Of a DNA stretch of 64,000 nucleotides, positions 51,694-57,906 are shown piece after piece. The DNA is from Marivivens donghaensis (lineage in GTDB: Bacteria; Pseudomonadota; Alphaproteobacteria; Rhodobacterales; Rhodobacteraceae). The notes under the pieces are model-generated. The model was given only the letters and a program-made list of their open reading frames with translations, did not search any database and was not told where the DNA came from. Position 1 is the stretch's first letter. Each line of letters starts with the position of its first letter. The translations under genes and the position numbers were made by a program. The stretch lies in the NCBI RefSeq assembly GCF_011806565.1, contig NZ_JAATOP010000002.1, positions 62,001 through 126,000 of the forward strand. The letters are read 5' to 3'.

Positions 51694-52329
51694 TTGACAC
51701 GTGGCGGCCAACATAAGAACAGGGAAGCGGACTCCGAGCGTAAGTGCATTGTCACTGGCGAAGTCCAACCCAAAGCAGGACTGATCCGATTTGTGGTCGG
51801 TCCTGACAATCAGGTCGTACCCGACGTGCTTGAGAAACTGCCGGGGCGTGGACTGTGGGTCACCGCCTCGCGCGATGTGATTGAAAAGGCGGGCAAGGGC
51901 CAGTTCTCGCGCTCCGCCAAAATGGCCGTAACCGTACCGGACGCACTTGTAGACGAGGTGGAACGCCAACTCGTCAAGCGCGTTGTCGATCTGATCGCCC
52001 TGGCTCGCAAGGCGGGCCTCGCGGTCTGCGGCTTTGAAAAGGTAAAAGGTTGGCTGGCCGGCGGAGAAAATGTCCGCGTTCTGCTTCAGGCGAACGACGG
52101 CTCCACCCGCGGTAAGGCCAAACTCTGGACGCCTCAGGGCGCCCGATATTTCGACTGTCTGAGTGCCGAGGAATTGGGTTTGGCTTTCGGACGGCAAAGT
52201 GTGATACATGGCGCGCTCGCGACTGGCGGACTCAGCGACCGTGTTGTAGAGGAAGCAGCGAAGCTGAAAAGCATGCGCGACACTGACGGCGGCAATGGGG
52301 CCACCGGAAAGGATAAAGAATCGACATGA
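51694..52329 (+). CDS. ylxR: YlxR-family RNA-binding protein (DUF448) with L7Ae-like domain
   Basis: A 211-residue protein between nusA and infB, the usual place. The N-terminal DUF448 domain ([39 protein letters not shown]) is a basic RNA-binding module; the C-terminal half ([22 protein letters not shown]) matches ribosomal protein L7Ae/YlxQ-type folds, so two small genes found separately in Firmicutes are fused. The start is TTG 51694 with a poor ribosome-binding site. It overlaps infB by 4 nt. Confidence 0.9.
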
Positions 52330-54860
52330 GCGATAACGACGGTAAAAAACCACTTGGTCTCCGCGGCGGCGCCGGCAACGTGAAGCAAAGCTTCAGCCAC
52401 GGACGCACCAAGAACGTCGTGGTAGAAACCAAGCGTAAGCGCGTCGTGGTACCGAAGCCCGGCGCGTCGAAGTCCGGTTCGGCCTCGCCGAAAGCCGGTG
52501 ATCCTTCGCGTCGTCCGGCTGGCATTTCGGATGCCGAACTGGAACGCCGTATGAAGGCACTCGCGATGGCGAAAGCCCGCGAAGCAGATGATCAAGCCAA
52601 GCGCGAAGCCGAAGAACGTGCACGCGAAGAAGAGCGCGAGCGCCGCAAGGCAGAAGCCGAAGCCAAGGAGCGCGAAGAGCGCGAACGCGAAGAAGCACTT
52701 CGCGCCAAGGCCGAGGAAGAAGAGCGCAAGAAGCGTGAAGCCGAAGAGGCCGCCAAGCGCGACGCACAGCAGAAAGCTGCCGCCAAAGAGAAGCGCCAGC
52801 AGCCCGCAGCTGCATCGCAAGCTCCGGCTGACCCTTCGGTTGCACAAGCTGCCGAAGCACGCGGTGCCGGTCCGACCGGTGCGCGCAAGCCGGATCGTGA
52901 ACGCGACAACCGCAACAACGACAACAAGCAAAACCGTGGCAAAGGCCGTGGCGACGACAACCGTCGTTCGGGCAAGCTGTCGCTGAACGACGCTCTGTCG
53001 GGGCGCGACGGTGGCCGTCAGCGTTCGATCGCAGCAATGCGCCGCAAGCAGGAAAAGGCCCGCCAGAAAGCTATCGGCGGCCAGCAGCAGCGTGAAAAGG
53101 TTGTCCGTGAAGTCCAGCTTCCGGAAATCATCACGGTTGCAGAGCTTGCTAACCGTATGGCCGAGCGCGTCGCTGACGTCGTTAAGGCGCTGATGCAGAA
53201 CGGCATCATGGCAACGCAGAACCAGTCGATCGACGCGGATACCGCGGAACTGATCATCGAGGAATTCGGCCACCGCGTACAGCGTGTGTCGGATGCCGAC
53301 GTTGAACAGGCGATTGATCAGGTCGAGGACAAGTCGGAAGACCTCCAGTCGCGTCCGCCGGTCATCACCATCATGGGTCACGTTGACCACGGTAAGACCT
53401 CGCTGCTCGACGCTATTCGTAAAGCAAACGTTGTTTCCGGCGAAGCCGGCGGCATCACCCAGCACATCGGTGCTTATCAGGTAACCACCGACTCCGGTGC
53501 GGTTCTGTCGTTCCTCGACACTCCAGGCCACGCGGCGTTTACCTCGATGCGTGCCCGCGGTGCTCAGGTGACAGACATCGTTGTACTCGTTGTTGCTGCT
53601 GACGACGCGGTTATGCCGCAGACCATCGAAGCGATCGCTCACGCGAAAGCTGCGAAGGTTCCGATGATCGTCGCGATCAACAAGTGCGATAAGCCCGACG
53701 CAAACGCCGTGAAGGTACGTACCGACCTGCTCCAACACGAAGTTCTCGTGGAAGAAATGGGCGGTGATGTTCAGGACGTCGAAGTTTCGGCAAAGACCGG
53801 CAAAGGTCTTCCGGAACTGCTCGAAGCCATCGCGCTTCAGGCCGAAATCCTCGAACTTCAAGCGAACCCCGATCGTGCAGCTGCCGGTGCCGTCATCGAA
53901 GCCCAGCTCGACGTCGGTCGTGGTCCGGTTGCCACCGTTCTGGTTCAGAACGGCACTCTCAAGCGCGGCGATATCTTCGTCGTGGGCGAGCAGTGGGGTA
54001 AGGTCCGCGCGCTGATTAACGACAAGGGCGACCGCGTCGAAGAAGCTGGTCCGTCGGTTCCGGTCGAGGTCCTTGGCCTCAACGGAACGCCGGAAGCCGG
54101 TGACGTGCTCAACGTTGTCGAGACCGAAGCTCAGGCCCGCGAAATCGCTGACTACCGTGCTCACGCTGCCAAAGAGAAGCGTGCCGCTGCCGGTGCTGCG
54201 ACGACCCTTGAACAGCTCATGGCGAAAGCCAAAGAGGACAAGAACGTCGCCGAACTGCCGATCGTGGTCAAAGCCGACGTTCAGGGTTCTGCCGAAGCTA
54301 TCGTTCAGGCGATGGAGAAGATCGGCAACGAAGAGGTCCGCGTTCGCGTCCTGCACCACGGTGTAGGTGCGATCACCGAAACCGATATCGGCCTCGCCGA
54401 AGCATCGGGCGCTCCGGTCATGGGCTTCAACGTTCGTGCAAACGCTCCGGCCCGTAACTCGGCCAACCAGAAGGGCGTCGAGATCCGCTACTACTCGGTG
54501 ATCTACGACCTCGTAGACGACGTGAAGAAAGCGGCCTCGGGTCTGCTGTCTGCCGAAGTCCGCGAAAACTTCATCGGCTACGCGTCGATCCGCGAAGTGT
54601 TCAAGGTTTCGAACGTCGGCAAGGTTGCCGGTTGTCTCGTCACCGAAGGTGTTGCTCGCCGCTCGGCCGGTGTTCGCCTTCTGCGCGACGACGTGGTTAT
54701 CCACGAAGGCACGCTCAAGACGCTCAAGCGCTTCAAGGACGAAGTCAAAGAAGTCATCTCCGGTCAGGAATGTGGCATGGCTTTCGAAAACTACGACGAC
54801 ATCCGCCCTGGCGATGTCATCGAAATCTTCGAGCGCGAAGAAGTGGAGCGCAGCCTGTAA
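52326..54860 (+). CDS. infB: Translation initiation factor IF-2
   Basis: IF-2 brings initiator tRNA to the 30S subunit. The 844 residues include a long, charged N-terminal part (about 70-240) with a highly repetitive Lys/Glu/Arg helix, a DNA-binding-like IF2N domain ([28 protein letters not shown]), the GTPase with G1 GHVDHGKT (351-358), G3 DTPGHAAF and G4 NKCD, then domains II and III and the fMet-tRNA-binding C-terminal domain. A perfect terminator follows. Confidence 0.97.
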
Positions 54861-54883
54861 TAGGGCTGCCCACAAACCAATTA

Positions 54884-54916
54884 AAAAAGGGACGGTCGAA
54901 AGACCGTCCCTTTTTC
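54884..54916 (+). terminator. Intrinsic terminator after infB
   Basis: AAAAAGGGACGGTC and GACCGTCCCTTTTT form a perfect 14-bp stem closed by a GAAA tetraloop. The same palindrome could also stop minus-strand transcripts from the small gene at 54939. Confidence 0.95.
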
Positions 54917-54938: not shown

Positions 54939-55070
54939 TTAGTTACGTGCGATGGGTGTTCCTGCGAACTGGCGACCGTTGACCTCCACAACGATACGAC
55001 CGTTTTCGAGAGCCTTGACGAAAAGGCCCTGCACAGAAACGCAACTTCCTACCACGATGGTTCTGAGCAT
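54939..55070 (-). CDS. Small protein of 43 residues, paralogue of the one at 55203
   Basis: An uncharacterised small gene. It begins ATG at 55070 with an AGGTG-like site 5-6 nt upstream and ends in TAA at 54939-54941. The product starts MLRTIVVGSCVSVQGLFV, continues KALENGRIVVEVNGRQF and ends AGTPIARN. It is 60% identical (26 of 43) to the next small gene, with the whole of CVSVQGLFV unchanged. The alternation of hydrophobic residues suggests a small beta-barrel or beta-hairpin. Paralogy is strong evidence that it is a real gene. Function is unknown. Confidence 0.8.
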   Translation of the reverse strand: MLRTIVVGSCVSVQGLFVKALENGRIVVEVNGRQFAGTPIARN

Positions 55071-55202
55071 TTTGACACCTGCTTGCATGAGTGATGTCTT
55101 ATTCTACCACAGGGCTGTTGAGTGCGCACGAAAATTTCACGCAAATGACACAAATTATTTTTATCTTGCGTGAGTGTTTCTGCGATGCAGCAAAGAATGC
55201 TG

Positions 55203-55337
55203 CTATGCAGCTTTGGTGACAGGCTTTCCAACGAACTGCCGGTCCTCGACGCGGACGACAACACGTCCGTCTTCGAGTTGGCGGACGAACAGTCCTTGGA
55301 CAGACACACAGGTGCCGATGGTGATGGTGCGGAACAT
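55203..55337 (-). CDS. Small protein of 44 residues, paralogue of the one at 54939
   Basis: An uncharacterised small gene with ATG at 55337 and GGAG 9 nt before it. The product begins MFRTITIGTCVSVQGLFV, continues RQLEDGRVVVRVEDRQF and ends VGKPVTKAA. The single cysteine and following VSVQG are identical to its paralogue. No signal peptide or membrane helix is present, so it should be cytoplasmic. It follows mutT by 85 nt on the same strand. I recall similar short proteins next to infB in other Rhodobacteraceae but cannot check this here. Confidence 0.82.
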   Translation of the reverse strand: MFRTITIGTCVSVQGLFVRQLEDGRVVVRVEDRQFVGKPVTKAA

Positions 55338-55422
55338 CGTCCGATTCTCCAAAAAGATACTGGGTACAGTACAACTTTAAGGAAAATCGGCTTTTCAATT
55401 AAGCAAGCAGAGGGATTGTTCC

Positions 55423-55827
55423 CTATAGCCAGTCGCGGAGGATCGGTATCAGAGGGATATCGGCAGGAGGCATCGGGTAATCCCGCAGCTCGTTCCCACG
55501 CACCCATTTCAGGGTCTGACCTTCCTGCGCCTGCGGTGTGCCGTTCCAGCGGCGGCAGGCGAAGAGGGGCATCAGTAGGTGGAAATCGTCGTAGTTATGG
55601 CTCGCGAAAGTGAGAGGCGCGAGGCAGGAATCCCACGTTTCGATGCCAAGTTCCTCATGAAGCTCGCGAATCAGGGCAGCTTCGGGCGTCTCACCGGGCT
55701 CTACTTTGCCGCCGGGAAACTCCCACAGACCGGCGAGCGATTTGCCCTCGGGACGCTGCGCAAGCAGAACGCGCCCATCGACATCGATGAGCGCGACTGC
55801 GGAAACGAGGATGATCTTCTTGCTCAC
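55423..55827 (-). CDS. mutT: 8-oxo-dGTP pyrophosphatase MutT
   Basis: MutT removes 8-oxo-dGTP from the nucleotide pool. The 134-residue protein has LLAQRPEGKSLAGLWEFPGGKVE and the Nudix box GGKVEPGETPEAALIRELHEELG, the standard MutT signature, and the C-terminal LKWVRGNEL seen in the family. It overlaps argJ by 4 nt. Confidence 0.94.
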   Translation of the reverse strand: MSKKIILVSAVALIDVDGRVLLAQRPEGKSLAGLWEFPGGKVEPGETPEAALIRELHEELGIETWDSCLAPLTFASHNYDDFHLLMPLFACRRWNGTPQAQEGQTLKWVRGNELRDYPMPPADIPLIPILRDWL

Positions 55828-57038
55828 GAGCGGTAGTCCGCGTTGATGCGGATGTATTCGTAGGTCAGATCACAGGTCCAAACTGTCGAAGCGCCAGAGC
55901 CGATGCCGAGGTCAACGCCGATGACCAGCTCTTCGTTCTTCATGTAGGCCGCGGCTTCGGCTTCGGAGTAGTTCGGCGCGCGCCAGCCGTTCTCGGCCAC
56001 TGTGATGTCGCCAAAGCGGATCGACAGTCGGTCACGGTCGGCCTCAGCGCCAGATTTACCCACGGCAGCCACGATGCGGCCCCAGTTGGCGTCCTGACCG
56101 GCGATAGCGGTCTTGACGAGCGGGGAGTTCGCGACCGACAGACCCACGCGCTTGGCGTCGGCGTCGTTAGCAGCGCCCGTGACTTGGATCTCGACGAATT
56201 TCGTCGCGCCTTCGCCGTCGCGGATCACCTGATGCGACAGGTCGAGCATGACCTTGTGCAGCGCGTCCTCGAAATCGGCGTTGCCGGTCACGTCCACGCC
56301 CGAAGCGCCCGTTGCGCCGATCAGTAGCGTGTCGGAGGTCGAGGTGTCGCTGTCGACGGTGATGCAGTTGAAGGTCTTGTCGGTGAGTTTCGACAGGATG
56401 CCCTGAAGCGCCTCATGGCCGATTTTCGCATCCGTAAAGATGTATACCAGCATCGTCGCCATATCAGGCGCGATCATGCCCGAGCCTTTGGCGATACCCG
56501 AGATTTTGACCTGCTTGCCATCCACATTGATGGTTGCGGCCGAGCCCTTGGGGAAGGTGTCGGTGGTCATGATCGCTTTTGCAGCGTCGGCCATCGTATC
56601 AGCGGACAGGTTATCCTGAAGCTCGCCGATCTTGGCGGTGATGCGGTCGTAGGGCAGGGGCTCACCGATCACGCCCGTGGAGGACGTGAAGATGCGGTCT
56701 GTTGCGATGCCGGTCTGTTCGGCGACCGAAGCGCAGAGGCTGTCGACAGCCTCCACACCGTTGCGACCGGTGAAGGCATTGGAATTGCCCGAGTTTACGA
56801 TAATAGCGGCCCGTCCCGCCTGCGATTTGCCGTTCTTGGCCTGACAGTCCAGCACGTTGGCCGACCGCGTGGCAGAGCGGGTGAAAACGCCCGCAACGGT
56901 GCTGCCTTCCGCCAATTCGGCGAGCATCACATCGGTGCGGTTCTTGTATTTCACACCAGCCATTGCGGTGGCAAAGCGGACGCCTTCAATAACCGGAAGT
57001 TCAGGGAAAGAGGCGGGAGCAAGTGGCGAGACGGGCAT
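55824..57038 (-). CDS. argJ: Bifunctional ornithine acetyltransferase/N-acetylglutamate synthase
   Basis: ArgJ recycles acetyl groups in arginine synthesis and, in its bifunctional form, also makes N-acetylglutamate. The 404-residue proenzyme is cut before a conserved threonine (MIAPDMA followed by TMLVYIFTDAKIG) to give two chains. NSGNSNAFTGRNG and the SPLAPA opening fit. The ribosome-binding site is weak, in line with coupling to the parvulin gene 4 nt upstream. mutT follows by overlap. Confidence 0.97.
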   Translation of the reverse strand: MPVSPLAPASFPELPVIEGVRFATAMAGVKYKNRTDVMLAELAEGSTVAGVFTRSATRSANVLDCQAKNGKSQAGRAAIIVNSGNSNAFTGRNGVEAVDSLCASVAEQTGIATDRIFTSSTGVIGEPLPYDRITAKIGELQDNLSADTMADAAKAIMTTDTFPKGSAATINVDGKQVKISGIAKGSGMIAPDMATMLVYIFTDAKIGHEALQGILSKLTDKTFNCITVDSDTSTSDTLLIGATGASGVDVTGNADFEDALHKVMLDLSHQVIRDGEGATKFVEIQVTGAANDADAKRVGLSVANSPLVKTAIAGQDANWGRIVAAVGKSGAEADRDRLSIRFGDITVAENGWRAPNYSEAEAAAYMKNEELVIGVDLGIGSGASTVWTCDLTYEYIRINADYRS

Positions 57039-57042
57039 GTTT

Positions 57043-57906
57043 TTACTGGTCCAGAAGCTGGATGTTGGAGATCAGAGCGGGATCGAACTCGACCTCGCTG
57101 CGGGTAACGTCAGCACCTTCTTCGAGCCCGGCGACGTATTCGTCAATCGCAGCGGTCTGGATTTCGTTCGCGAGCTGACCAGCGGTCTGCTGAAGCGTCG
57201 GTGCTTCGGTGTCGCGGGTGTCTTCCAGCTTCACGATGTGCCAGCCGAATTGGGTCTGAACCGGATCGGAGACTTCGCCCTTTTCAAGCGAGGTGACGGT
57301 GTCTTCGAACTCGGGGACCATCACGCCGGTGCCGAACCAGCCGAGATTGCCGCCGTTGGCCGAGGTGGTGTCGAGCGAAACGTCTGCCGCAACGTCAGCG
57401 AATTCCTCGCCAGCGCCAAGGCGTTCGACGACAGCCTGCGCTTCTTCTTCGGTTTGCACGAGAATGTGAGAAGCATTGTATTCGGTGGCCGGTACGAAGT
57501 CGGCGACCATCTTTTCGTAAGCGGCGTTCACGGCCTCTTCCGAAACGGCTTCTTCGCTCACGCGAGCGAGCACTTCACCAGCGAGAATGCTGCGCTCTTC
57601 GTTTTCGATGGCGTACTGCGCACGGGCCGGTACGTCCTCGAGGTCGTCGGCCAGAAGTTGCTGTTGGATCAATTGGTTAAGTACACCTTCCCACAGCACG
57701 TCAGCGGGGAGCTGCTGGTACTGCTGGGGCAGGGCAGAGGCTGCAATGATGATGTTGGCAACGGTGATGTCGGTACCGTCAACGGTCGCAACGACCGTGT
57801 CGGCATTCACGTCCGCCGTTGCGGCTTCGGCAGTGTCCTGCGCTTGTGCTGTTGCTGCAATCAGAGCGACAGCGCTTGCCGTGGCGAATGTGGCAAATTT
57901 CTTCAT
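57043..57906 (-). CDS. Periplasmic peptidyl-prolyl isomerase (parvulin type)
   Basis: A 287-residue exported protein with a cleavable signal peptide (about residues 1-22, ending AQAQ), an N-terminal SurA-like helical region, and a PpiC-type parvulin domain at about 135-225 (ASHILVQTEEEAQAVVERL; GGNLGWFGTGVMVPEFED; FGWHIVKLED). It assists folding of periplasmic and outer-membrane proteins. It is divergent from secA and starts the argJ-mutT run. Confidence 0.92.
   Translation of the reverse strand: MKKFATFATASAVALIAATAQAQDTAEAATADVNADTVVATVDGTDITVANIIIAASALPQQYQQLPADVLWEGVLNQLIQQQLLADDLEDVPARAQYAIENEERSILAGEVLARVSEEAVSEEAVNAAYEKMVADFVPATEYNASHILVQTEEEAQAVVERLGAGEEFADVAADVSLDTTSANGGNLGWFGTGVMVPEFEDTVTSLEKGEVSDPVQTQFGWHIVKLEDTRDTEAPTLQQTAGQLANEIQTAAIDEYVAGLEEGADVTRSEVEFDPALISNIQLLDQ

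What the first reader, a model, noticed from the sequence alone, without database searches (positions are those of the whole stretch)
54939..55337. Twin small genes of 43 and 44 codons with an invariant CVSVQGLFV core
Two minus-strand frames with own ribosome-binding sites are 60% identical in protein, share a single cysteine in the same place, and lie in tandem between infB and mutT. Frames this short are normally left out of annotation; conservation between two copies argues that both are translated and under selection. No function is known to me. They may be small beta-barrel RNA- or protein-binding factors linked to the translation genes beside them, or redox-sensitive because of the single cysteine.
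Basis: partly seen in the sequence, partly recalled or inferred. Interest (0 to 1): 0.78.

Follow-up and report, generated by a model that had tools for sequence, protein, structure and literature searches.

The report
Twin copies of unannotated small protein
Two neighbouring genes too short to be annotated encode a real, strongly conserved protein of about 40 residues found in roughly two thirds of the bacterial family Rhodobacteraceae; the same small domain also sits in front of the export signal of a sulfate-uptake protein, so it is probably a cytoplasmic docking or control module whose job is still unknown.

Summary
Copies A (55203-55337, minus, 44 aa) and B (54939-55070, minus, 43 aa) share 26 of 43 residues. 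The protein is real: matches in 196 of 295 genomes of the family, a fixed place after ppiC-argJ-mutT and convergent to infB, median dN/dS 0.14 over 189 pairs, a confident four-strand model (pLDDT 93). No curated family reached its cut-off. The tandem pair is rare: the window and one related MAG; genomes of the window's genus hold 0, 1 or 2 copies.

The main result lies outside the window. The same domain opens the sulfate-binding-protein precursor, ahead of its signal peptide, in at least 16 genomes and 3 plasmid records; in one of these no ATG, GTG or TTG lies between domain and mature protein. Free copies also lie on Sulfitobacter and Paracoccus plasmids and in two phage contigs.

I favour a cytoplasmic protein-binding adaptor; that mechanism is inferred.

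The parts
55203..55337 (-). copy A, 44-aa small protein (next to mutT)
   Evidence: family, dN/dS and structure
54939..55070 (-). copy B, 43-aa small protein (downstream copy)
   Evidence: L059 has a second copy in the same position
55347..55350 (-). GGAG, likely ribosome-binding site of copy A
   Evidence: read
55076..55080 (-). AGGTG, weak candidate ribosome-binding site of copy B
   Evidence: read
54883..54916 (.). terminator-like hairpin of 15 pairs between copy B and convergent infB
   Evidence: consensus scan
55137..55173 (.). inverted repeat with 8-base arms TCACGCAA / TTGCGTGA between the copies, upstream of B; function unknown
   Evidence: read, not tested
55423..55827 (-). mutT (NUDIX; TIGR00586 101.9 bits, cut-off 97.9), immediately upstream
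   Evidence: same place in 75 of 80 loci
55824..57038 (-). argJ
   Evidence: 75 of 80 loci
57043..57906 (-). PpiC-type peptidyl-prolyl isomerase
   Evidence: Rotamase families; 74 of 80 loci
52326..54860 (+). infB (convergent; named by recognition, not scanned against a family library)
   Evidence: convergent relative in 71 of 80 loci, 69 of them within 440 nt

Best explanation
Shown: A and B are two copies of a real gene for a single-domain protein of about 40 residues, found so far only in Rhodobacteraceae (in the GTDB sense), on their plasmids and in two phage contigs. It normally stands alone as one gene after mutT and is under strong purifying selection as protein. The same domain is the N-terminus of the sulfate-binding-protein precursor in part of the family, ahead of the signal peptide, so it is made first and should lie on the cytoplasmic side while the rest is exported. 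Inferred: the domain is a soluble cytoplasmic small beta-barrel that works by binding a protein partner. In the fusions it does so in cis on the precursor, most likely to control its targeting or rate of export; the free protein does the same kind of docking in trans. In the window the duplication left a copy A close to the family consensus and a more changed copy B, which may have split partner or timing. I hold the shown part at about 0.95; the number below is for the adaptor mechanism.
For: Distribution: 98 of 149 genomes, 196 of 295, 174 of 244 in an order-level sample; in a class-level sample 3 of 289 matched, all in the window's family. Selection: dN/dS median 0.137, 183 of 189 pairs below 0.3. 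Synteny: mutT 75, argJ 75, ppiC 74, convergent infB 71 of 80 loci; 6 of 6 further chromosomal copies lie by mutT. Fold: pLDDT 93.3, pTM 0.69. Fusion: 16 genomic precursors; three of three scanned exceed the TIGR00971 and PRK10752 cut-offs; free and fused profiles align over 40 columns at probability 99%, E 3.6e-18; the fused model repeats the four strands (block means 85-93), then a helix 40-61, then the binding protein. L034 has no ATG, GTG or TTG between the domain's start and the mature part. The fused domain is better conserved than the signal and linker stretch, 0.67 against 0.52. The Thioclava record annotates the gene from the domain's start. Copy A shares 34 and B 27 of 40 residues with a consensus string of mine.
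Against: No partner, location or phenotype is known. No PDB match reaches E 0.001 (best 0.84) or Z 5 (best 4.2), so 'barrel' is a shape, not a relationship. Fused domains vary more than the binding protein: omega median 0.50 over 125 pairs against 0.23 over 105 for the start of the mature part, with dN above dS in several pairs, and conservation 0.67 against 0.86. Many have GTG at codon 40, a possible internal start; the Ponticoccus record starts the gene after the domain. 99 of 295 genomes lack a match and congener G669 has an empty site, so the protein is dispensable there. Plasmid copies near polysaccharide or regulator genes and phage copies near lysis genes do not obviously involve export.
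Confidence: 0.38

Rival explanations
1. RNA-binding mini-barrel: an Sm/Hfq-like small protein that binds RNA, perhaps as a ring, and regulates mRNAs; in the fusion it would act on its own message.
For: Hfq and an archaeal SmAP are among the weak fold matches; a short TI..V..QG likeness to the genome's own Hfq; free proteins are mildly basic, mean net charge +2.9; single members of 76 hit archaeal RNase P component 1 profiles at E 0.024 and 0.03.
Against: hhalign against the own Hfq gives probability 0.4%. The model has four strands and no helix, not the helix and five strands of Sm (recalled). Over the same 40 residues the mean net charge is +2.0 free and +1.1 fused, low for RNA binding.
Confidence: 0.2
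2. Sulfur or redox status sensor: the cytoplasmic domain senses a sulfur metabolite or thiol state, by the cysteine in the free form, and tunes sulfate uptake or a stress response.
For: Fused to the sulfate-binding protein, with cysT and an Rrf2 regulator beside it in annotated records; cysN near three Sulfitobacter plasmid copies, cysD seen behind it in one; Cys in 30 of the 31 best-scoring copies; mutT beside the free gene.
Against: The position-10 Cys is missing in G117 and L059 copy 1, in 3 of 6 further chromosomal copies, in the 15 fusions aligned and in five of six plasmid copies read, although some of these have a Cys elsewhere. The mutT-linked locus has no sulfur gene among its conserved neighbours. 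cysN there lies in a polysaccharide region.
Confidence: 0.15
3. Mobile cargo gene: a host-takeover or exclusion factor spread by phages and plasmids, of which the copy at mutT is a domesticated form.
For: Two phage contigs carry it between tail-fibre and endolysin genes on the opposite strand; 15 plasmid records match (at least two of them fused forms); the best match in the viral structure library is a 57-aa protein at TM 0.79, E 6.7e-3; copy number 0, 1, 2 within one genus.
Against: The chromosomal copy is at one place in 75 of 80 loci and in most genomes sampled; the phage copy resembles the mutT-linked copy of G023, which fits capture from a host. Four tblastn searches of 50,697 phage records gave none or only partial chance-level matches.
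Confidence: 0.12
4. Coding small RNA: the transcript, like Pos19 of R. sphaeroides, acts mainly as regulatory RNA and the peptide matters little.
For: Short gene followed by a terminator-like hairpin; Pos19 is such a case in a related species (PMC5036791).
Against: Selection is on the protein: third codon positions vary widely. No Rfam match in the window. The domain survives as part of a larger protein. Pos19 lies between cxp and fadB and its authors did not find it in other species.
Confidence: 0.05
5. Chance open frames, not genes.
For: Many frames of 30-50 codons are listed around the locus.
Confidence: 0.01

Closest known systems
Extended signal peptide region (ESPR, PF13018) of type V secreted proteins
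   Same: A conserved N-terminal extension ahead of a Sec signal peptide; reported to slow export or affect periplasmic transit in some proteins, with little role in others (PMC8151025, passages seen).
   Different: ESPR is about 25 residues and belongs to type V secretion; here it is a folded 40-residue domain on a sulfate-binding protein and also a free protein. PF13018 was not returned.
Pos19 coding small RNA of Rhodobacter sphaeroides
   Same: Short translated frame of similar length in a related species; its over-expression lowers sulfur-metabolism mRNAs, cysP among them (PMC5036791, parts 1-4 of 7 read).
   Different: Different locus (cxp-fadB), not found in other species by its authors; the effects tested did not need the peptide. 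Sequences were not compared here.
Small beta-barrels: C-terminal SH3-like domain of BirA, Tudor, Sm/Hfq, MSSS (MutS2/Smr SH3)
   Same: Weak likeness in fold comparison; single members touch SH3 profiles at E about 0.01.
   Different: No significant structural or sequence match; no known ligand.
Sulfate ABC transporter substrate-binding protein (TIGR00971, PRK10752)
   Same: The fused proteins are members from about residue 52-76 on (three scanned).
   Different: They carry the extra domain before the signal peptide; the Cereibacter and several Paracoccus plasmid homologues listed match only from residue 71 or 72 of the query.

Membership tests
Sulfate-binding protein (TIGR00971), for the fused relatives only | Score above the curated cut-off | tested here: met
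   401, 379.1 and 402.6 bits against 155.5 for the three fused proteins given, of 16 found
DUF5983_N (PF25638) | Score above the gathering cut-off of 27 bits | tested here: not met
   19.4 bits for B, none for A; 4 of 34 members matched at E up to 1, best 0.00083
Sm/Hfq (PF17209) | Profile similarity to Hfq | tested here: not met
   hhalign probability 0.4% against the own Hfq, which scores 108.4 bits itself
Sm/Hfq (PF17209) | Helix plus five strands, ring oligomer (recalled) | tested here: inconclusive
   Monomer model has four strands; oligomers could not be predicted here
Small beta-barrel / SH3-like fold | Barrel of short strands with matching topology | tested here: inconclusive
   Confident model but best Z 4.2 and best E 0.84
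ESPR (PF13018) | Match to the Pfam model | tested here: not met
   Not among families returned for 34 and 15 domain sequences or three full fused proteins
ESPR-like function | Extension alters targeting or export rate | not testable with these tools
   needs export assays
Pos19 | Same locus | tested here: not met
   the paper places it between cxp and fadB; ours follows mutT
Pos19 | Same peptide sequence | not tested
   its sequence was not in the text seen
Any Rfam RNA family | Gathering score | tested here: not met
   0 matches in the window

The most novel reading that the evidence does not exclude
Rhodobacteraceae use one undescribed 40-residue barrel both as a free cytoplasmic protein and as a folded domain ahead of the signal peptide of an exported sulfate-binding protein, where it gates export or synthesis from the cytoplasmic side and is left as a membrane-tethered remnant each time a binding protein is cut; phages and plasmids carry free copies to interfere with or borrow the same docking site.
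Probability: 0.2. Interest if true: 0.82.

Novelty: new variant of a known kind. Interest (0 to 1): 0.6.

Why it matters
A protein present in about two thirds of the sampled genomes of a large bacterial family, with named carriers such as Rhodobacter, Luteovulum, Sulfitobacter and Thalassovita, reached no family cut-off in the libraries scanned and was unannotated on the plasmids checked. Its double life, free and fused ahead of a signal peptide, gives a handle on its partner, because sulfate uptake and export of one protein can be measured. A folded domain ahead of a Sec signal peptide on a plain binding protein seems unusual and would bear on how precursors are targeted.

Tried and rejected
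Pos19: I expected from memory that this sulfur-linked coding RNA might be the same gene; the paper puts it elsewhere, so I dropped it. The StsR paper (PMC8307010) was searched for terms of this locus: no occurrence. Leader peptide: rejected, because no same-strand gene follows B before the end of infB. RNA element: disfavoured by third-position freedom and no Rfam match. Hfq kinship: rejected on hhalign, although the fold lists contain Hfq. Translation-factor link: rejected, infB is convergent. A PilZ-like motif came to mind from memory and was dropped, because the serine is not kept in the fusions. Upstream of the copies the sigma-70 scan found no promoter; other promoter types were not tested.

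Literature: six searches bear on the gene or the precursor extension (the motif letters gave 0 papers) and their listings show no description; two searches were on Pos19, 128 on ESPR, 129 on the fold. The library lacks most subscription journals. The Ruegeria proteogenomics paper (PMC3305630, passages) has no occurrence of infB, mutT or argJ in its main text; supplements were not open to me. The sORFdb paper (PMC11796252, passages) was looked at; its database could not be searched here.

Limits: pairs are not independent, and most of their loci were chosen by motif. Presence counts use E cut-offs of 0.01, 0.001 or 0.0001. Match tables are cut, so 16 fused genomes is a lower bound; in one of the 16 (L154) the first ten or so residues of the domain are not in frame, and it was left out of alignments A4 and A5. 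In the class sample most non-matching genomes are not listed, so I cannot say how many lie outside the family. Of 309 relatives only the best 80 are shown. PHROGs was scanned with four sequences only. Of 18 mutT loci from genomes without a match, 8 show mutT facing infB 13-193 nt apart with no small frame between; the other 10 have no infB within the fetched flank. On five of the 11 plasmid regions viewed I did not read the frame itself.

Full report
What is there. On the minus strand the window reads ppiC (57906-57043), argJ (57038-55824), mutT (55827-55423), copy A (55337-55203), copy B (55070-54939), then a terminator-like hairpin at 54916-54883 and the end of convergent infB (infB by recognition). 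A is MFRTITIGTCVSVQGLFVRQLEDGRVVVRVEDRQFVGKPVTKAA, B is MLRTIVVGSCVSVQGLFVKALENGRIVVEVNGRQFAGTPIARN. They share 26 of 43 residues, far beyond 5000 shuffles. No further copy was found in the window's genome.

It is a gene family. Relatives occur in 98 of 149 genomes of the window's family by tblastn with A and in 196 of 295 by profile; an order-level sample gave 174 of 244, a class-level sample 3 of 289, all three inside the window's family. The family is unnamed in those outputs; named relatives are Rhodobacteraceae. In the named collection 309 of 313 pattern matches encode a relative, of which the best 80 were kept. In those 80 loci mutT lies upstream on the same strand in 75, argJ in 75, ppiC in 74, and infB converges in 71; some contigs end early. 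The gap from mutT to the start codon is 73-215 nt, median 123; from the stop to the end of infB it is 42-440 nt in 69 loci and over 2.8 kb in two. A G-rich Shine-Dalgarno-like run is present in 79 of 79 loci with enough sequence.

Selection. Over the first 40 codons, 189 usable pairs of 232 give a median dN/dS of 0.137, 183 of them below 0.3, maximum 0.455; A against B gives dN 0.293, dS 1.97. Third positions vary most (1.66 bits against 0.72 and 0.54). What is conserved is the protein.

Structure. With 76 sequences AlphaFold2 gives pLDDT 93.3 and pTM 0.69: strands 2-7, 11-20, 26-30, 33-39. Foldseek finds nothing at E 0.001 or better in the PDB; among its top rows are BirA's C-terminal domain, Hfq, Tudor and integrase C-terminal domains at E about 1 to 3, and VIA-align's best Z is 4.2. 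In the viral library the best row is an unnamed 57-aa protein, TM 0.79, 43% identity, E 6.7e-3. This is a small-barrel shape without a proven relative among solved structures. Pfam (36 domain sequences, some in two of these), NCBIfam (76) and PHROGs (4) gave no family that reached its cut-off, or in PHROGs no hit at E 0.1.

The cysteine. It is at position 10 in 30 of the 31 best-scoring copies, but missing in G117 and L059 copy 1, in 3 of 6 further chromosomal copies read (L214, L215, L216), in the 15 fusions aligned and in five of six plasmid copies read.

The twin. Tandem copies occur in the window and in one MAG, L059, of the 80 loci. In the window's genus I saw two copies (window), one without the Cys (G117) and none (G669, where the ends of mutT and infB are about 60 nt apart with a hairpin between). 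L059 has an upstream copy without Cys and a downstream copy with it. So A and B look like an older local duplication followed by divergence and loss. A 40-residue tree puts A with L059 copy 1 and G117, but does not join B to L059 copy 2.

The fusion, the most informative result. In at least 16 genomes the same domain opens a protein of about 370-400 residues. After about residue 40 comes a signal-peptide-like stretch, then a sulfate-binding protein; three of three scanned exceed the TIGR00971 and PRK10752 cut-offs. In 14 of these 16 genomes there is a separate second match besides the fusion. Free and fused profiles align over 40 columns with probability 99% and E 3.6e-18. The fused model repeats the four strands, then a helix at 40-61, then the binding protein (mean pLDDT 75.7, 15 sequences). 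In L034 no ATG, GTG or TTG lies between the domain's start and the mature part, and in L033 the only one is codon 87, late in the signal region, so there the domain should be translated. The domain is better conserved than the stretch between it and the mature part (0.67 against 0.52) and less than the mature part (0.86). Against this reading, many others have GTG at codon 40, the Ponticoccus record starts the gene after the domain, and domain omega is 0.50 over 125 pairs, higher than 0.23 over 105 pairs for the start of the mature part. The Thioclava record starts at the domain. Three plasmid records add to the 16: Paracoccus denitrificans, Ponticoccus, Thioclava.

Mobile copies. tblastn finds the domain on 12 plasmid records with A and 15 with the phage copy. 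I viewed 11 regions of apparently free copies and read the protein in six. Five adjoin a mannose-1-phosphate guanylyltransferase gene (H4, H6, H10-H12); H10 and H12 share identical neighbours and H11 the same layout, all three with cysN further on, cysD seen for H10. One lies near other sugar genes (H9), one by VanZ and YjbH/YjbF (H1), three after a response-regulator gene (H5, H7, H8), one near none of these (H2). Two IMG/VR contigs carry a copy between tail-fibre and endolysin genes, on the opposite strand. It resembles Paracoccus plasmid copies and the mutT-linked copy of G023, which suggests capture from a host.

Empty sites. Of 18 mutT loci from genomes without a match, 8 show mutT facing infB at 13-193 nt with no small frame between; in the other 10 infB was not in the flank. 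The protein is therefore dispensable in some lineages.

How it most likely works. Shown: a conserved protein with a confident model, whose domain can sit ahead of a Sec signal peptide and so on the cytoplasmic side. Inferred: it binds a cytoplasmic or membrane-peripheral protein. In layout the known analogue is the ESPR of type V secreted proteins, reported to slow export in some cases (PMC8151025, passages). I give the adaptor idea about 0.38. RNA binding (0.2), sulfur or redox sensing (0.15) and mobile-element cargo (0.12) remain open.

What is known. Six searches of the held library listed no description of the gene or of the precursor extension. Pos19, a small coding RNA of R. sphaeroides, is a different locus (PMC5036791, first four of seven parts read).

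Noticed in passing
L032-L036, L149-L155, L157, L159-L161, L171, L172, L206: Sulfate-binding-protein precursors carry the same 40-residue domain before the signal peptide; one public record starts the gene after it, another at it.
   Followed up: partly
L207 5154-5276, L208 6001-6123 (IMG/VR contigs): Phage contigs carry a free copy between tail-fibre and endolysin genes, on the opposite strand.
   Followed up: partly
L168, L169, L170, L198, L199 (Sulfitobacter plasmids): Unlisted copies beside a mannose-1-phosphate guanylyltransferase gene; three of the regions also hold cysN.
   Followed up: partly
L195, L196, L197 (Sulfitobacter plasmids): The match lies 180-195 bp after a response-regulator gene near a cache-domain gene; two plasmids of S. 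indolifex carry the same region.
   Followed up: no
window 55137-55173: Inverted repeat TCACGCAA / TTGCGTGA between the two copies, a possible operator or hairpin upstream of B.
   Followed up: no
L054 (CP059262.1): A record titled Exiguobacterium profundum carries the mutT-small gene locus of Rhodobacteraceae; the name looks wrong.
   Followed up: no
L158 2183-2308: A free-standing gene of the fused type (MFRTIVIAGTITAQG...) with no binding-protein frame right behind it, a possible intermediate between free and fused forms.
   Followed up: partly
L190 (G083) and L216 (G045): Very divergent copies without the position-10 Cys, still downstream of mutT.
   Followed up: partly
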